Below are positions 23,043 to 32,856 of a DNA stretch of 32,856 nt, in pieces. This DNA comes from Williamsia sp. (lineage in GTDB: Bacteria > Actinomycetota > Actinomycetes > Mycobacteriales > Mycobacteriaceae), in NCBI RefSeq assembly GCF_016462415.1, contig NZ_JAEMTF010000052.1:1-32856 (forward strand), given 5' to 3'. Within the stretch, counting starts at the first letter, position 1. The number at the start of each line of letters is the position of its first letter. The notes under the pieces are model-generated. The model made no database searches. It had not been told where the DNA came from and saw only the letters and a list, made by a program, of their open reading frames with translations. Both the position numbers and the translations under genes were made by a program.

Positions 23043-23120
23043 CTGATGAGAGTAAGTCGTTCGACCGACCGCGGCGAAGTGACCCGGACCACTGGTTTTC
23101 CGAGAGTGTGTTCGATCCCA

Positions 23121-23134
23121 CAACAATTGCGTTG
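23121..23134. promoter_or_regulatory. CAAC-N6-GTTG dyad in the GPx-MarR intergenic gap
   Basis: A 14-base dyad with four-base arms (CAAC at 23121-23124 and GTTG at 23131-23134) lies about 35 bases before the MarR start. A second GTTGCG half-like motif follows at 23144-23149. It could be a MarR autoregulatory site, but short arms make chance likely. Confidence 0.3.
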
Positions 23135-23168
23135 GCGACGATAGTTGCGTGTGCGTTACCTTTTTTCG

Positions 23169-23693
23169 GTGACTCTCACCCACCCGCAGCCTGCGCTCTC
23201 GGCATCGGTGTCGGAGGAGCAGACGTTCGACGTACTCGTCGATTTCCTCAACCGTCTGCTCTGCACGACCGAGGTCGACGCGCTCGACAGCATGATGAAC
23301 ACCGAGATCTCGTTCTCCCATTTCCGCACCCTGATGATCCTCTCCGGGCGTGGGCGGGCGTTGTCGTTGAACGAACTCGGCGACGCGTTGCACCTGTCGC
23401 TCGCGGCGGCCGGACGCAACGTCGACAAGCTGGTGGGTCTGGGACTGGTGGACCGGCGCGAGGACAGCCAGGACCGCCGGGTCAAGCGGGTGTCCCTCAC
23501 CGACGAGGGGCACGCGATGGTCAGCGCACATCTCGACAACAAGGAAGACCAGTTCCGCAGCTTCGTGGGCCGGTTGCCCGAAGACCTGCGGGACGGACTG
23601 CACTCCGTCCTGAACTCGATAGTCAGCGGCGACTATCTCTCCGAATCCGATCCGGTGTTCGCGCACCGGAAGAGCCAGAAAGTGAACGGATGA
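23169..23693 (+). CDS. MarR-family transcriptional regulator
   Basis: From GTG 23169 the product has 174 residues; GTG 23151 and TTG 23145 are alternatives and none has a clear ribosome site. The winged helix shows in ISFSHFRTLMILSGRGRALS, LNELGDALHLSLAAAGRNVD and KLVGLGLVDRREDSQDRRVK with VSLTDEG, the D-x-R-x-x-R wing typical of MarR. The C-terminal helices (HLDNKEDQFRSFVGRLPEDL) form the dimer. The stop overlaps the transporter start in an ATGA (23690-23693), a standard MarR-efflux arrangement in which the repressor senses the exported compound. Confidence 0.93.
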   Translation: MTLTHPQPALSASVSEEQTFDVLVDFLNRLLCTTEVDALDSMMNTEISFSHFRTLMILSGRGRALSLNELGDALHLSLAAAGRNVDKLVGLGLVDRREDSQDRRVKRVSLTDEGHAMVSAHLDNKEDQFRSFVGRLPEDLRDGLHSVLNSIVSGDYLSESDPVFAHRKSQKVNG

Positions 23694-25186
23694 CCTCACC
23701 AATCAAGGCCTCCGCAGAAGGGGCAGGCGCGGAGAGCGGCGGTCTCGACGCGCGGGTTCTGAAGATCGCCGCCGTGGTCGTGCTCGGCGCGATCATGTCC
23801 ATCCTCGACACCACCGTGGTCGCGGTGGCGCAGAACACCTTCCAGGACGTCTTCAACACCTCCGCCGCCAGCGCCGCGTGGACCGCGACGGGCTACACCC
23901 TGGCCCTGGCCGCAGTCATCCCGCTGTCTAGCTGGGCCGCAGCACGTTTCGGCACCAAGAAGGTCTACCTGACCTCGCTGGTCCTGTTCGTCATCGGATC
24001 CATCCTCTGTGCTTTCGCCTGGAACATCGGCTCGCTCGTCGCGTTCCGCATGCTGCAGGGCGCGGGCGGCGGCATGTTGATGCCCGTCGGCATGATGATC
24101 CTGACGCGCGCAGCCGGACCGGAGCGTGTCGGCTCGGTCATGGCCGTGCTCGGTGTCCCGATGCTGTTGGGCCCCATCGCCGGCCCGATCCTCGGCGGCG
24201 TGCTCATCGAGTACGTGTCGTGGCACTGGATCTTCCTGATCAACGTCCCGATCGGCATCCTCGCCTTCCTGTACTCGGCCTGGATCCTCGAGGACGACGA
24301 CGAGAAGTCGAGGCCGCCTTTCGACTTCGTCGGGCTGCTGCTGCTCTCACCGGGTCTCGCGCTGTTCCTGTACGGCGTGTCGTCGTCGAACGACGCGGGC
24401 ACGTTCATCGCGGCCAAGGTGCTGATCCCCATGGCGATCGGTGCCGCCCTGATCATCGCGTTCGTGTTCCACGCCCTGCGTGGCAAGAACAACAACCCGC
24501 TGATCGACCTGCGGCTGTTCAAGAACCCGACGCTGAGCTGGACCGTGGTCACGTTCAGCTTGTTCCTGATCGCGTTCTTCGGTGCCTCGCTGCTGTTCCC
24601 GCAGTACTTCATCGGTGTGCGCGGCGAGTCCACCCTGATGGCCGGATTGCTGGTCGCACCACAGGGTCTCGGTGCGATGATCACCATGCCCATCGCGGGT
24701 CGCATGACCGACAAGATCGGGCCGGGCAAGTTCGTGCTCACCGGCATCGTGCTGATCGCCTTCGGACTGGGGACGTTCATGTTCCTCGGCGCCGGGACGT
24801 CCTACTGGATCCTGGGTGCGGCGCTGTTCGTGCAGGGCCTCGGTATGGGTATGTCGATGATGCCGATGATGTCGGCCGCGTTGGCCACCCTGTCGGCCGA
24901 CAAGGTCGCCGACGGCTCGACGCTCGTCAACGTCGTCCAGCAGACCGCCGCGTCGGTCGGTACCGCGGTCATCTCGGTGATCCTCGCGAGCAACCTGAAG
25001 TCGGTGTCGCCGCCGACGCCGTCCGGCCTCGCCGGGGCGTTCGGTGACACGTTCGTCGTCGCCGTGGTGCTGATCATCCTGTGCCTGGTGCCTGCGTTCT
25101 TCCTGCCCCGCAAGAAGGTGTCGGTGCACACCGAGATCGGTGCCGACGGCGAGCCCGTCAAGGCCGCTCCGGTGATGATGCACTGA
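23690..25186 (+). CDS. MFS drug:proton antiporter, DHA2 (EmrB/QacA) type
   Basis: The 498-residue integral membrane protein has about 14 hydrophobic segments. Diagnostic motifs are SILDTTVVAVAQNTF in helix 1 (motif D1 of the DHA2 family), RFGTKKVY (motif A region), FRMLQGAGGGMLMP (motif B, with the Arg), and the antiporter motif C in GVPMLLGPIAGPILGG. The ATG overlaps the MarR stop. EmrB-type pumps export drugs, dyes or toxic metabolites. As I remember it, an EmrB homologue (Rv0783c) lies next to the S9 peptidase genes in M. tuberculosis, so this is likely the syntenic counterpart. A strong hairpin follows the gene. Confidence 0.95.
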   Translation: MTSPIKASAEGAGAESGGLDARVLKIAAVVVLGAIMSILDTTVVAVAQNTFQDVFNTSAASAAWTATGYTLALAAVIPLSSWAAARFGTKKVYLTSLVLFVIGSILCAFAWNIGSLVAFRMLQGAGGGMLMPVGMMILTRAAGPERVGSVMAVLGVPMLLGPIAGPILGGVLIEYVSWHWIFLINVPIGILAFLYSAWILEDDDEKSRPPFDFVGLLLLSPGLALFLYGVSSSNDAGTFIAAKVLIPMAIGAALIIAFVFHALRGKNNNPLIDLRLFKNPTLSWTVVTFSLFLIAFFGASLLFPQYFIGVRGESTLMAGLLVAPQGLGAMITMPIAGRMTDKIGPGKFVLTGIVLIAFGLGTFMFLGAGTSYWILGAALFVQGLGMGMSMMPMMSAALATLSADKVADGSTLVNVVQQTAASVGTAVISVILASNLKSVSPPTPSGLAGAFGDTFVVAVVLIILCLVPAFFLPRKKVSVHTEIGADGEPVKAAPVMMH

Positions 25187-25200
25187 GCTGATCTCGACCC

Positions 25201-25240
25201 GAGAGGCCCCGCTGGTAGCACCACACCAGCGGGGCCTCTC
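25201..25240 (+). terminator. 15-bp perfect hairpin after the MFS gene
   Basis: GAGAGGCCCCGCTGG (25201-25215) pairs perfectly with 25226-25240 across a 10-base loop, starting 14 bases after the MFS stop. The stem is GC-rich and stable; no T-run follows. It most likely ends the MarR-MFS transcript. The repeat array starts 14 bases further on. Confidence 0.8.
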
Positions 25241-25253
25241 CCTGTGCGGTCCC

Positions 25254-25379
25254 CGCCAGTTGGGCACGTAACGACGCCAGTTGGGCACGTAATCTCCGCA
25301 GTTGGGCACGTAACGACCGCAGTTGGGCACGTAACGACCGCAGTTGGGCACGTGATCTCCGCAGTTTGGAATCAGCAGG
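25254..25379 (+). repeat. left 21-bp tandem array (five full units plus one decayed)
   Basis: Units start at 25254, 25275, 25296, 25317 and 25338 with no spacers; a sixth, decayed unit begins at 25359. The shared core is CAGTTGGGCACGT. The last six bases vary between TAACGA-like and (A/G)ATCT-like ends, so units are not all identical. The period equals two turns of B-DNA, which would put each core on the same helix face. The same unit occurs in the opposite orientation after the next gene, and again at the right edge of the window. No comparable repeat was noticed elsewhere in the window. Confidence 0.93.
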
Positions 25380-25383
25380 CCCA

Positions 25384-25427
25384 GACGTCGGAGACCTCGG
25401 TGAAACCACCTGGCGCCTGCCGACGTC
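25384..25427. promoter_or_regulatory. GACGTCGG inverted repeat just before the DUF559 gene
   Basis: GACGTCGG (25384-25391) and CCGACGTC (25420-25427) are exact complements separated by 28 bases. The right arm ends nine bases before the ATG, so it overlaps the region where ribosomes bind. It could be an operator bound by the winged-helix part of the encoded protein, or an RNA hairpin. Each arm contains the palindrome GACGTC. Confidence 0.45.
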
Positions 25428-25436
25428 GAAGCTCTC

Positions 25437-26342
25437 ATGACGCATGAACAACACACTTTCTGGGGCACCGAGTCTGCCTTGATCCGTACCGACTCCGCCG
25501 CAAACGCGGTCCGCCGCGAATTCCGCAGACTCCAACGCGGCGTCTATGTCGATCCGACGGCGGCGGTCGACGCAACGCATCTCATCAGAGCCGCAGCGCT
25601 GCGGGCCGGACCGGGCGCAGTGGTCGCCGGCGTGAGTGCGGCGATCCTGCACGGCGTGACCTACGTGGACCACGACCCTGACATCGAACTGATCCGCGAC
25701 CTCAACGGGCAGGGCCGCCGTTTCGACTCCGTCCGCATCACACGCACCGATCAGCTCGATCCGGCCGACGTCACGATGATCGACGGTCTGGCCGTGACCA
25801 ATCCCGTGCGAACGGCGTACGACCTGGGTCGCCGCACCCCCGACTGGCGCGCCCTCGGCCGGCTCGACGACCTCGCCCGACACACCGATCTCGATCTTCG
25901 ACAACTCTGGGCCTACACACGCGATCACCCACGCACCAAAGGGATCCGTCAGCTGCGCGAACTGTCGGCCCTCGTCGACCCGAAGGCGGAATCACCGGGC
26001 GAGAGTTGGCTCCGCCTGTTGATGATCCGGCACGGCCTTCCTCGGCCAGAATCGCAGATCATCATCACCGATCACAACGGCCGTGAGATCGCACGGTTCG
26101 ACCTGGGCTACCGGCGCTACAAGATCGGCATCGACTATGACGGCGTCGACTTTCACACCTCCCCCACGGACCGCGCCCACGACATGAGGCGCGACATGCG
26201 TACTCGCGATCTGGGGTGGGAACCCCTACGCGTGACCGGCGAGCGCATGTCTGCCGATCCCCACGGGGTCACCGATCGTATCGCCGAAGAACTCGCGATC
26301 AGAGGCTTCGAATCGTCGACTCGGGCAGCGCGACCCGCGTGA
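25437..26342 (+). CDS. DUF559/Vsr-like predicted endonuclease with AbiEi-like N-terminal region
   Basis: The 301-residue protein has two parts. The N-terminal half (about 1-180) resembles the AbiEi antitoxin-type region found in many actinobacterial proteins: RREFRRLQRGVYVDP, AALRAGPGAVVAGVSAAILH, DGLAVTNPVRTAYDLGRR. The C-terminal part (about 185-290) looks like DUF559, a restriction-endonuclease fold: GESWLRLLMIRHGLPRPESQ, ARFDLGYRRYKIGIDYDG, then DRAHDMRRDMRTRDLGWEPL. Glu (GES), Asp (RFDLGY) and the acidic IDYDG are plausible metal ligands. No partner toxin gene is adjacent. The first codons are AT-richer than the neighbours, hinting at transfer. The gene is flanked on both sides by inverted 21-bp arrays. 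Function is unknown; DNA cleavage is predicted from fold only. Confidence 0.83.
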   Translation: MTHEQHTFWGTESALIRTDSAANAVRREFRRLQRGVYVDPTAAVDATHLIRAAALRAGPGAVVAGVSAAILHGVTYVDHDPDIELIRDLNGQGRRFDSVRITRTDQLDPADVTMIDGLAVTNPVRTAYDLGRRTPDWRALGRLDDLARHTDLDLRQLWAYTRDHPRTKGIRQLRELSALVDPKAESPGESWLRLLMIRHGLPRPESQIIITDHNGREIARFDLGYRRYKIGIDYDGVDFHTSPTDRAHDMRRDMRTRDLGWEPLRVTGERMSADPHGVTDRIAEELAIRGFESSTRAARPA

Positions 26343-26349
26343 CCGACCC

Positions 26350-26433
26350 GCCGCAGGTGCCCAACTGCGGCTGTTACGTGCACAACTGGCGTGACTACGT
26401 GCCCAACTGGCGTCGTTACGTGCCCAACTGGCG
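26350..26433 (-). repeat. right 21-bp tandem array, inverted relative to the left array
   Basis: Four contiguous 21-base units (starting 26350, 26371, 26392, 26413) read on the minus strand with the same CAGTTGGGCACGT core as the left array. The unit at 26413 is an exact reverse complement of the left unit at 25254; the one nearest the gene is the most decayed. The array begins seven bases after the nuclease stop and ends 35 bases before the convergent peptidase stop, so it fills the gap. No target-site duplication was seen beyond the two arrays. Confidence 0.93.
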
Positions 26434-26468
26434 GGTCGGCGGGTTGGTTTGTGCGGGGGCAGGGGCGG

Positions 26469-28577
26469 TCAGACGGCACCTGTCTGGCGGAGGACCCAGG
26501 CGTGTTCGAAGGCGACTTCCTCCCACTGCTTGTACCGACCACTCACACCACCGTGCCCGGCGGACATCTCCGTCTTGAGCAGGATCGCGTTGTCCGACGT
26601 CGAGTTGTCCTGCAGCCGCGCCACCCACTTCGCCGCCTCGGTGTACATCACTCGGGTGTCGTTGAGCGACGTGAGCGCCAGGATCGCCGGGTACTCGAGC
26701 GGCGCGACGTTCTCGTACGGCGAGTACGACCGCATGTACTCGTAGACCTCTTTGTCCTCCAGCGGGTTCCCCCACTCGTCCCACTCGATGACGGTCAGCG
26801 GCAGCGACGGGTCGAGGATCGACGTCAGCGGGTCTACGAAGGGCACCACCGCCAATATCCCGCTGAACAACTCGGGCGCGAGGTTCGCGACCGCACCGAT
26901 CAACAGACCGCCGGCCGAGCCTCCCTCCCCCACCAGCTGCGCCGGGGTTGTCGCCCCGGTCTCGACGAGATGCCGCGCGGAATCGACGAAGTCGGTGAAG
27001 GTGTTCTTCTTGGTGAGGGTCTTGCCGTTCTCGTACCAGTGCCTGCCCATCTCGCCGCCGCCGCGGATGTGCGCGATGACGAAGACGACACCGCGGTCGA
27101 GCAGCGACAACCGCGCGATGGAGAACCCGGGATCCATGCTCGCCTCGTACGAGCCGTACCCGTAGAGCAGCGTCGGCGCCGGCCGCGACACGCCTTTGCG
27201 ACTCACGATCGACAGCGGAATCTGCGTGCCGTCACCGGCGGTGACCCACTCGCGCTTCTGCTCGTAGTCGGCCGGGTCGTAATCGCCCAGCACCACTTGA
27301 CGTTTGAGCAGGATTCGCTCACCCGAGGTCACGTCGAGGTCGATGATCTCACTGGGTTCGATGAAGCTGGTGTAGCCGATCCGCAGGCGCGGGGCCGCCC
27401 ACTCGGGATTTCCGGCCAGGCCGACCGACGACAACGGTTCGTCGAACGTCAGTTCCTGAAACGACACGTCCGACGAGCTCGCCGCACCGCGGATGTCGGC
27501 GATCGCGATCCGCGGGGTCGCCGCACGTCGGTAGCTGAGCACCAGTTGATCGGCGAACGCGTCGACGCCCTCGATCCGCGACTCCGCGTCGTGCGGGATC
27601 AGGACGCGGGTCGCGGTCGGATCATCGACCGGGGCGTCGAGGAGCTCGAAGTTCTCGGCGTTCTCGTTGTGGGTGATGAGGAATCGGTCCTCGCCACCGA
27701 TCACGGCGTGCTCTACGTCGTACTCGACACCGTCGCGGCGTGGCCAGATCACCTGGAACTCACCGGTCGGATCGTCGGCCGGGAGGACGTGCACCTCGGA
27801 CGTGATCTTCGACCCGAGCCCGATCAAGAGGTACTTGTCGCTGCGCGTTCCGCCGATGCCGACCCAGAACCGCTCGTCGGGCTCGTGGAACACCTTCACG
27901 TCGTCGGTACCGGCGCCGAGATCGTGGCGCCACACGGTGTCGGGACGCCACGCGTCGTCGACGGTGAGGTAGAAGATGTGGCGACCGTCGTGCGACCACG
28001 TCGCGCCCGGAGCGGTGTTCTCGACCGTCTCGGCGAGTAGCTCACCGCTGCGAAGATCCTTGAAGCGCAGGGTGTATCGCTCGTCGCCCACCTTGTCGAC
28101 GCTGTAGGCCAGCATCGTTCCGTCGTCGGTGACCGAGAATGCGCCGAGGCTGTAGAAGTCGGTGCCTTCGGCGTCGAGGTTGGAGTCGAGGAGCACCTGT
28201 TCGCCGGGCAGCGGGTCGTCGCCGGACACTGTCGGCGGATCCCAGTCGTCGTCGGCGGTGATCGGCGCACGGCACCGCAGTGCGTACTGCTGCCCCTCCA
28301 CCGTCCGGGCGTAGTACCAGTACTGCCCGCGACGCGACGGCACCGACATGTCGGTTTCCTGCGTGCGCGACTTGATCTCGCCGTAGATCGCGGCGCGCAG
28401 GTCGGCGAGCTCGGCGGTGTCGGCCTCGGTGAGAGCATTCTGCGCCTCGAGATACGCGATGACCTCCGGATCGTCCTTCTCACGCAGCCACTCGTAGTTG
28501 TCGACGACCTCGTCACCGTGGTGCACCCGAACGCTGGGCACCTTCTTCGCGACGGGCACGGCCTGCTTCTCGGTCAC
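26469..28577 (-). CDS. ptrB: S9A prolyl oligopeptidase family protein (oligopeptidase B-like)
   Basis: The 702-residue cytosolic serine peptidase has an N-terminal seven-bladed propeller (about 80-420) that screens out large proteins, and a C-terminal alpha/beta hydrolase domain. Catalytic residues are Ser554 in GEGGSAGG, Asp640 in SLNDTRV and His675 in GHGG. The acidic pair region ([17 protein letters not shown]) and [16 protein letters not shown] are typical of oligopeptidase B, which cuts after Arg/Lys in short peptides. Length matches the family. Its start overlaps the purC stop in an ATGA (28574-28577), an arrangement like purC-ptrB in M. tuberculosis, where ptrB is split into two genes; here it is a single intact frame. 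Confidence 0.95.
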
Positions 28578-32769: not shown

Positions 32770-32779
32770 TCTGCCCTGC

Positions 32780-32856
32780 TGCCCAGTCGACGTCCGTAGC
32801 TGCCCAGTCGACGTCCGCAACCGCCCAGTCGACGGGGTTACGTGCCCAACTGACGG
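32780..32856 (-). repeat. third 21-bp array in the purB leader, cut by the window edge
   Basis: GCCCA recurs at 32781, 32802, 32823 and 32844, exactly 21 bases apart. The first two units share CCCAGTCGACGTCCG; the third is intermediate. The fourth, at the edge, contains on the minus strand the exact canonical core CAGTTGGGCACGTAAC of the arrays around the DUF559 gene. So one array grades from a diverged type to the canonical type. It begins 11 bases before the purB start codon and is oriented like the right array. It continues outside the window. Confidence 0.85.

What the first reader, a model, noticed from the sequence alone, without database searches (positions are those of the whole stretch)
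25254..26433. Predicted nuclease gene bracketed by inverted arrays of one 21-bp repeat
A DUF559/Vsr-like gene is flanked within 57 and 7 bases by tandem 21-bp arrays that share one core (CAGTTGGGCACGT) in opposite orientation. The whole 1.18-kb unit sits between an EmrB-type gene and an S9 peptidase gene that, as I recall, are neighbours in M. tuberculosis without it. The layout resembles REP elements around RAYT transposases, but with a restriction-fold protein instead. It could be a new mobile element, a repeat-targeting nuclease with its own binding sites, or a domesticated defence or competition locus. Seen directly: repeats, orientation and gene. Inferred: mobility and cleavage.
Basis: partly seen in the sequence, partly recalled or inferred. 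Interest (0 to 1): 0.85.

Follow-up and report, generated by a model that had tools for sequence, protein, structure and literature searches.

The report
Nuclease with private dispersed repeat arrays
A bacterial gene predicted to make a DNA-binding, DNA-cutting protein sits between mirror-image arrays of a short repeat, copies of that same repeat lie between genes elsewhere in the genome, and many relatives in the same bacterial phylum show the same pairing, each lineage with its own repeat; this points to an unrecognised type of repeat-spreading or repeat-keeping system.

Summary
The 301-aa gene (25437-26342) lies between inverted arrays of a 21-bp unit. The genome is a Williamsia, not a Gordonia. 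The unit is dispersed: 28 exact cores at 14 places here, 53-75 in three other Williamsia, none in four. All 19 close homologs in 8 Williamsia genomes have their own 21/22-bp arrays; seven paralogs of 26-34% identity have REP-like palindromes instead. Flank matching was found in 33 of 60 phylum-wide family members (2 of 142 control ORFs) and 55 of 79 named loci (0 of 57). Unit sequences turn over completely, yet two-turn spacing is kept, both sides of a locus match, and three tested unit types occur in number only in genomes carrying the cognate gene group. Two dispersed arrays occupy convergent junctions that are 13-35 nt (or gapless) in genomes without that gene. The predicted fold joins an AbiEi-like half to a Vsr/homing-endonuclease-type nuclease with conserved acidic residues; no Y1/RAYT transposase was found. 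It works like REP-RAYT with unrelated parts. Best reading: a nuclease that recognises its private repeat and drives its spread and homogenisation. Pairing is shown; binding, cleavage and spread are inferred. Some families are not dispersed.

The parts
25437..26342 (+). 301-aa protein: AbiEi-like N-terminal half (about 1-180) plus Vsr/homing-endonuclease-type C-terminal domain (about 184-291), with E189, D222 and D235 conserved
25257..25376 (+). upstream array: five 21-bp units with core CAGTTGGGCACGT plus a decayed sixth
26355..26433 (-). downstream array: four units of the same repeat, inverted
25401..25427 (+). promoter-like motif TGAAAC-N17-CGTC, 9 nt before the ATG, shared with Williamsia/Gordonia homologs (ECF-sigma-like by recall)
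   Evidence: read; 22 of 28 homologs vs 34 of 3950 random 93-mers (motif first spotted)
25201..25240 (+). 16-bp perfect hairpin after the MFS gene and before the array
   Evidence: I11; no T-run terminator was called
32778..32852 (-). dispersed array at the window end: units of a second 21-bp flavour, then one exact core of the same unit
23108..25186 (+). MFS transporter gene on the left (ORF as called from the first start; the MFS domain begins near residue 225)
26469..28577 (-). S9 prolyl-oligopeptidase gene, convergent neighbour on the right

Best explanation
The locus is a two-part genomic repeat system. Part one is a gene that stays at its locus and looks vertically inherited; its product has an AbiEi-like DNA-binding half and a Vsr/homing-endonuclease-type nuclease domain. 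Part two is that gene's private repeat: a short core reiterated about every two helical turns (21 or 22 bp here; 19-bp steps in paralog families), as inverted arrays on both sides of the gene and, in several gene groups, as inverted or single arrays between genes elsewhere. Shown: the pairing, the private and concerted repeat sequence, the dispersal, array-free orthologous junctions, and the predicted fold. Inferred: the N-terminal half binds each unit on one DNA face; the nuclease nicks or cuts at or near arrays; repair from other arrays homogenises units, changes unit number and sometimes seeds an array at a new intergenic junction. It works like REP-RAYT but uses a different enzyme and a different repeat. 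Promoter motifs suggest stress or DNA-damage expression (inferred).
For: All 19 homologs (E<=1e-40) in 8 Williamsia genomes have arrays: 15 on both sides by TRF, 3 by TRF on one side plus two units visible on the other, 1 with an assembly gap on one side. Seven of 7 distant own-genome paralogs are bracketed by matching palindromes. Phylum-wide 33 of 60 vs 2 of 142 control ORFs; named loci 55 of 79 vs 0 of 57. Unit A counts 28/53/56/75 in four genomes and 0 in the other four; unit C 75/58/15 vs 0-2 in the other five; unit B 2/5/5 vs 0 in five: each set is the genomes carrying that gene group. A locus's own two arrays match (median 104) while unrelated loci score about 21. Period 21/42/22/44 in 53 of 54 arrays. 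Array-free junctions at two sites. Fold. Y1 transposase family in 0 of 8 genomes.
Against: No binding, cleavage or mobility was observed. 27 of 60 and 24 of 79 family members showed no flank repeat above the threshold. One paralog's repeat is not dispersed, and unit B's two exact hits in the own genome lie beside its gene. Between two about 91%-identical genomes all 5 A-sites in 200 kb keep their places, so spread is slow or old. G107 carries the group C gene yet has only a 57-bp gap with one unit-like stretch at site 1. Arrays in G062/G044 also bracket an unrelated oxidoreductase-like gene. The protein-repeat correlation over all pairs is weak (Mantel rho 0.23). Gain versus loss at the empty sites rests on parsimony over two sites, and no target duplication was defined.
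Confidence: 0.6

Rival explanations
1. The arrays are host-useful structures at gene ends (bidirectional terminators, mRNA 3' protection or chromosome-organisation sites), and the protein is an architectural or regulatory binder that no longer cuts or spreads them.
For: In G062 12 of 17 array sites that overlap no called ORF lie between convergent called genes against 24-26% of neighbour pairs in two other Williamsia; one dispersed +/- array folds as RNA with z -9.9; site positions are stable between G079 and G120.
Against: Acidic active-site positions are conserved; unit sequence turns over with the gene lineage; the MFS gene already has its own hairpin before the array and no T-run terminator was called at the locus; relatives do without arrays at the same junctions.
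Confidence: 0.22
2. An AbiEi-type autoregulator or abortive-infection relative: the flanking repeats are operators of the gene itself, and dispersed copies are incidental.
Against: Neither flanking gene is an AbiEii-type nucleotidyltransferase; repeats sit downstream as well as upstream; dozens of copies lie far from the gene.
Confidence: 0.08
3. A self/non-self or decoy arrangement: the nuclease attacks foreign or damaged DNA, and chromosomal arrays hold or restrain it.
For: Nuclease fold; DNA-damage-type promoter motif (by recall) in some relatives, 13 of 51 vs 0 of 3913.
Against: No defence gene beside the window gene; array number varies from none dispersed to 75 cores.
Confidence: 0.07
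4. Chance or assembly artefact.
For: Six of 14 places lie at contig ends in this draft genome.
Against: Same arrays in other, better assembled genomes; pattern control reads 0; control ORFs 2 of 142 and 0 of 57.
Confidence: 0.01

Closest known systems
REP/REPIN-RAYT (TnpA-REP) systems
   Same: Gene beside copies of a short repeat; the repeat is dispersed in extragenic space, often as inverted pairs; several independent families per genome
   Different: Enzyme is not a Y1/HUH transposase (family found in 0 of 8 genomes); in the window's group the repeat is a direct array of 21-bp units rather than a palindrome; the GTAG tag of REPs was not searched for
Homing endonucleases of the EDxHD/Vsr type (I-Bth0305I)
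   Different: No intron or intein seen around it; gene keeps its place; tied to arrays of short sites dispersed in the genome; carries an AbiEi-like half
AbiEi antitoxins of type IV toxin-antitoxin systems
   Same: N-terminal half in fold and profile
   Different: Fused to a nuclease; no AbiEii beside it; dispersed repeats
MTES_1575 / DUF559 Vsr-like restriction-endonuclease families
   Same: The C-terminal domain belongs to this superfamily (48 of 52 members hit PF18741)
   Different: The paper passages seen describe the domain in large HEPN fusions (PMC3710099), not in a repeat-bracketed small protein
CGTC-tagged REPs, reported to lack a dedicated transposase (PMC3733652, passages seen)
   Same: Dispersed extragenic palindromes without a RAYT partner
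   Different: Not tested here whether they neighbour DUF559 genes; a lead only

Membership tests
REP-RAYT (REPtron/REPIN) | Y1/HUH tyrosine transposase gene | tested here: not met
   PF01797 found in 0 of 8 Williamsia genomes while controls ring in 5 of 14; the protein folds as AbiEi plus Vsr-like
REP-RAYT (REPtron/REPIN) | Gene flanked by the repeat on both sides | tested here: met
REP-RAYT (REPtron/REPIN) | Repeat dispersed in extragenic space, frequently as inverted pairs | tested here: met
   36 of 42 examined clusters of two or more units overlap no called ORF, gene calls crude; one paralog family is not dispersed
REP-RAYT (REPtron/REPIN) | Each repeat unit palindromic with a conserved tag tetranucleotide | tested here: inconclusive
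   Units of the window's group are direct repeats that change sequence between lineages, but distant paralogs have palindromes; the tag was not searched for
Homing endonuclease gene | EDxHD/Vsr-type nuclease fold with conserved acidic residues | tested here: met
Homing endonuclease gene | Gene inserts into its cleavage site, in an intron, in an intein or free-standing | tested here: inconclusive
   Gene found beside the S9 gene in 7 of 8 Williamsia genomes and absent from the S9-MFS junction of Tsukamurella; cleavage site unknown
AbiE type IV toxin-antitoxin | AbiEi with an adjacent AbiEii nucleotidyltransferase | tested here: not met
   Neighbours of the window gene are MFS and S9 peptidase; other loci were not scanned for AbiEii
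MTES_1575 / DUF559 Vsr-like family | Profile match of the C-terminal domain | tested here: met
   48 of 52 members at E<=0.001; the window protein is just below Pfam's cut-off, 34.4 vs 38.2 bits
Insertion sequence | Transposase gene with terminal inverted repeats, element moving as a unit with target duplication | tested here: inconclusive
   Inverted arrays present, but the gene stays at an orthologous junction and no duplication was defined

The most novel reading that the evidence does not exclude
A homing-endonuclease-type enzyme with an AbiEi DNA-binding half evolved, independently of RAYTs, into the keeper and spreader of its own REP-like repeats; many such nuclease-repeat pairs coexist per actinobacterial genome, each with a private code read in two-helical-turn steps, and the nuclease is induced by DNA damage.
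Probability: 0.5. Interest if true: 0.95.

Novelty: categorically new. Interest (0 to 1): 0.88.

Why it matters
Dispersed extragenic repeats of bacteria are explained so far mainly by RAYT transposases, and one large REP class has been described as lacking a partner (PMC3733652, passages seen). A second, unrelated type of enzyme tied to its own repeats, with several pairs per genome (nine bracketed genes in the window's own genome) and relatives across a phylum, would give orphan repeats a candidate owner. It would also supply matched protein-DNA pairs whose recognition code has changed repeatedly, and show a nuclease kept with its targets inside the chromosome. It also warns that profile searches label these genes AbiEi, which may inflate counts of AbiE defence systems.

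Tried and rejected
Mobile 1.18-kb cassette: weakened, since the gene holds an orthologous junction in 7 of 8 genomes; the junction in the eighth (G062) was not examined. RAYT-driven repeats: Y1 family in 0 of 8 genomes. Rfam: only one sub-threshold hit, to a snoRNA family. Sigma-70 promoters and T-run terminators: none called in 25150-26500. PHROGs: no hit for three members. Nonomuraea gerenzanensis homolog L160: no flank repeat seen, with the gene bounds set by hand. Recent transposition between G079 and G120: none of 5 A-sites differs in place. Paralog core GCGCTCCACTTNC: not dispersed.

Selection and dropped rows. The 60 phylum genes were picked by me from 139 listed matches (stand-alone frames away from contig ends, 23 genomes, none from Williamsia). 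L154 may not belong to the family and the frame the script took for L156 does not look like it; both were kept in the count as misses. The score limit of 34 was chosen after seeing the controls and then used unchanged. The 79 named loci are the best kept of 112, and several are the same loci as the 19 homologs. L182 (192-aa frame) was kept as a miss. Alignment A1 used 30 of the 60 phylum genes and left out L010, L013, L014 and L017. One search used 28 named loci (without L182), the window and three others. One search covered five of the seven paralogs; all seven. One search dropped single-unit sites. Both promoter motifs were spotted by eye before being counted.

Literature searches that found no description of this pairing; I saw listings, plus passages of PMC3733652, PMC3710099, PMC3116915, PMC6789036, PMC5656591 and PMC5087735. 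The letters of the RecA-NDp motif and the ECF-promoter likeness are recalled, not read. That emrB and ptrB are neighbours in M. tuberculosis was not tested.

Full report
Observation. The window holds a 301-aa gene at 25437-26342 between an upstream array of five CAGTTGGGCACGT cores spaced 21 bp (25257-25353, + strand) and a downstream array of four inverted cores (26355-26430), two exact and two with one mismatch. With up to two mismatches the core occurs 13 times in the window; shuffles give 0.99 on average and none of 100 reaches 13. The left neighbour is an MFS transporter and the right, convergent neighbour an S9 peptidase.

The repeat is dispersed. In the window's own draft genome the exact core occurs 28 times (reversed-pattern control 0), at 14 places on 11 contigs, 6 of them within 300 bases of a contig end. 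Printed sites show runs of the same 21-bp unit, in some places + units followed by - units, and sometimes joined to a second flavour or to units resembling those of the C218 paralog. In 301 genomes sampled from the family the core reaches 28, 53, 56 and 75 copies in four of the eight genomes of the genus and 0 in the other four; 41 other genomes have one or two.

Every close homolog has its own arrays. A search of the 8 Williamsia genomes gave 19 homologs at E<=1e-40, the window gene included. TRF found 21- or 22-bp arrays on both sides of 15; three (L034, L042, L044) had a TRF array on one side and two visible units on the other, and one (L010) has an assembly gap on one side. The unit sequence differs between gene groups. 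Blast of flanks shows that six homologs share both the MFS and the S9 flank and a seventh the S9 flank; at that one position the unit is CAGTTGGGCACGT-type in four genomes, GTCGAGTGGGCG-type in two and a 22-bp unit in one. So the repeats were replaced in place, on both sides, along the gene lineage.

Distant paralogs show the same layout with another repeat architecture. Seven own-genome paralogs at 26-34% identity (L011-L017) are each bracketed by matching REP-like palindromes (best scores 50-100). In five of them core copies stand 19 bp apart, facing inverted copies; the full pattern of two forward and two inverted cores on both sides is complete in two (L014, L015) and has missing or irregular copies in three (L012, L013, L016); the other two have one core each way.

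Statistics. For 60 members of PF18741 across the phylum, picked from 139 listed matches and none from Williamsia (search; stretches), I scored the best local match between the 300 bp before and the 300 bp after the gene (plus 60 and 30 nt inside it), direct or inverted. 33 of 60 exceed 34, against 2 of 142 neighbouring ORFs; above 47 it is 25 of 60 against 0 of 142. For the 79 named loci it is 55 of 79 against 0 of 57 ORFs, and above 47 it is 45 of 79; 28 of the 29 Williamsia/Gordonia-type loci (one record is labelled Kitasatospora) and 27 of the 50 others pass. Several of these named loci are the same as the 19 above. Two Tsukamurella tyrosinosolvens genes annotated DUF559 (EL451_RS09310, EL451_RS18665) score 95 and 91, and their palindromes recur, the genes' own copies included, in 20 places on 8 records and 12 places on 9 records of the plasmid collection, all Tsukamurella; one palindrome may be counted on both strands.

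Private code. Across 32 Williamsia/Gordonia-type loci, comparing upstream with downstream flanks only (so that orthologous flank DNA cannot help), a locus's two arrays match each other at a median score of 104 (minimum 44); different loci score about 21, 28 at 58-70% protein identity, 49 at 70-85% and 99.5 above 85%. The own partner array is the best of all 32 for 21 loci and second or third for the other 11. A Mantel test gives a weak rho of 0.23, with 17 of 5000 permutations as high. The sequence is free but the step is not: TRF found 54 arrays on the 58 flanks of 29 loci, and 53 have period 21, 42, 22 or 44, that is, about two helical turns. Three unit types were counted in all 8 genomes. 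Unit A: 28/53/56/75 and four zeros. Unit C: 75/58/15, other five 0-2. Unit B: 2/5/5, other five 0. In each case the genomes with copies in number are those that carry that gene group (in G107 the gene-flanking unit itself is a close variant of unit C). One paralog core is not dispersed, and the two exact unit-B hits in the own genome lie beside the gene.

Array-free junctions. Two dispersed C-arrays of G062 were followed in the other genomes. At site 1 the convergent genes are 277 bp apart in G062, 167 in G044 and 57 in G107 (one unit-like stretch), but 27 in G120, 34 in G079, 28 in G000 and without a gap in G094; G018 gave no usable match. At site 2 the gap is 258 in G062, 241 in G044 and about 270-299 in G107, but 13 in G120, 15 in G079, about 13-15 in G000 (read by eye next to an assembly gap), 31 in G094 and 35 in G018. 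The genomes with arrays are those with the group C gene. In 200 kb compared between G079 and G120 (about 91% identical) all five A-sites are shared and differ in unit number and sequence, so turnover within sites is faster than gain of sites. Of 42 clusters of two or more units examined in four genomes, 36 overlap no called ORF; in G062 12 of 17 such sites lie between convergent called genes, against 24-26% of neighbour pairs in G079 and G120; the gene calls are crude. Against a strictly gene-specific reading, arrays in G062 and G044 also bracket an oxidoreductase-like gene.

Expression hints. Williamsia/Gordonia homologs share [TGA]GA?AAC-N15-18-CGTC just before the start codon (22 of 28 against 34 of 3950 random windows; 2 of 51 other loci), ECF-sigma-like by recall. 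Among the 51 other loci, 13 have TGTCRGTG-N8-YA before or at the start, most at about -28, against 0 of 3913; by recall this is the PafBC/RecA-NDp DNA-damage promoter. PMC6789036 passages confirm that PafBC acts through a motif of that name, but its letters were not seen. Both motifs were noticed before they were counted.

Interpretation. The pairing of gene and repeat, the privacy of the repeat, its concerted turnover, its dispersal and the array-free junctions are shown. That the AbiEi-like half binds the unit, that the nuclease cuts at or near arrays, and that repair then copies and homogenises them, is inference. Of the known systems I considered, REP-RAYT has the same logic, and its defining enzyme was tested for and not found. 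Hence: works like REP-RAYT, is not a member.

Noticed in passing
L242 2572-3820; L243 2233-3378: Group C arrays, inverted, bracket an oxidoreductase-like gene (about 304 aa) in two Williamsia genomes; similar spacing to the nuclease loci but a different gene.
   Followed up: partly
window 32778-32834; L027, L029, L030: A second 21-bp unit flavour (CGACTGGGCGGTTGCGGACGT-like) adjoins the main unit; it resembles the unit of the orthologous gene in other Williamsia and may be a relic of an earlier code.
   Followed up: partly
upstream of 13 of the 51 loci outside Williamsia/Gordonia (e.g. L192, L193, L201, L202): PafBC/RecA-NDp-like motif (by recall) before members of the nuclease family, mostly mycobacterial, suggesting DNA-damage induction.
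   Followed up: partly
L174: A record labelled Kitasatospora arboriphila carries a Williamsia-type locus (53% to the window protein, arrays like those of W. muralis, L173); possibly a contaminated or mislabelled assembly.
   Followed up: no
alignment A1: A PADLOC AbiEi model hits 50 of 52 of these nuclease proteins, so defence-system surveys may count them as AbiE.
   Followed up: partly
L161, L162, L294 (Tsukamurella tyrosinosolvens NCTC13231): Records deposited as plasmids carry purB, purC, glf and other housekeeping genes and look like chromosome pieces.
   Followed up: no
PMC3733652: CGTC-tagged REPs are said to lack a dedicated transposase; a DUF559 partner could be looked for.
   Followed up: no
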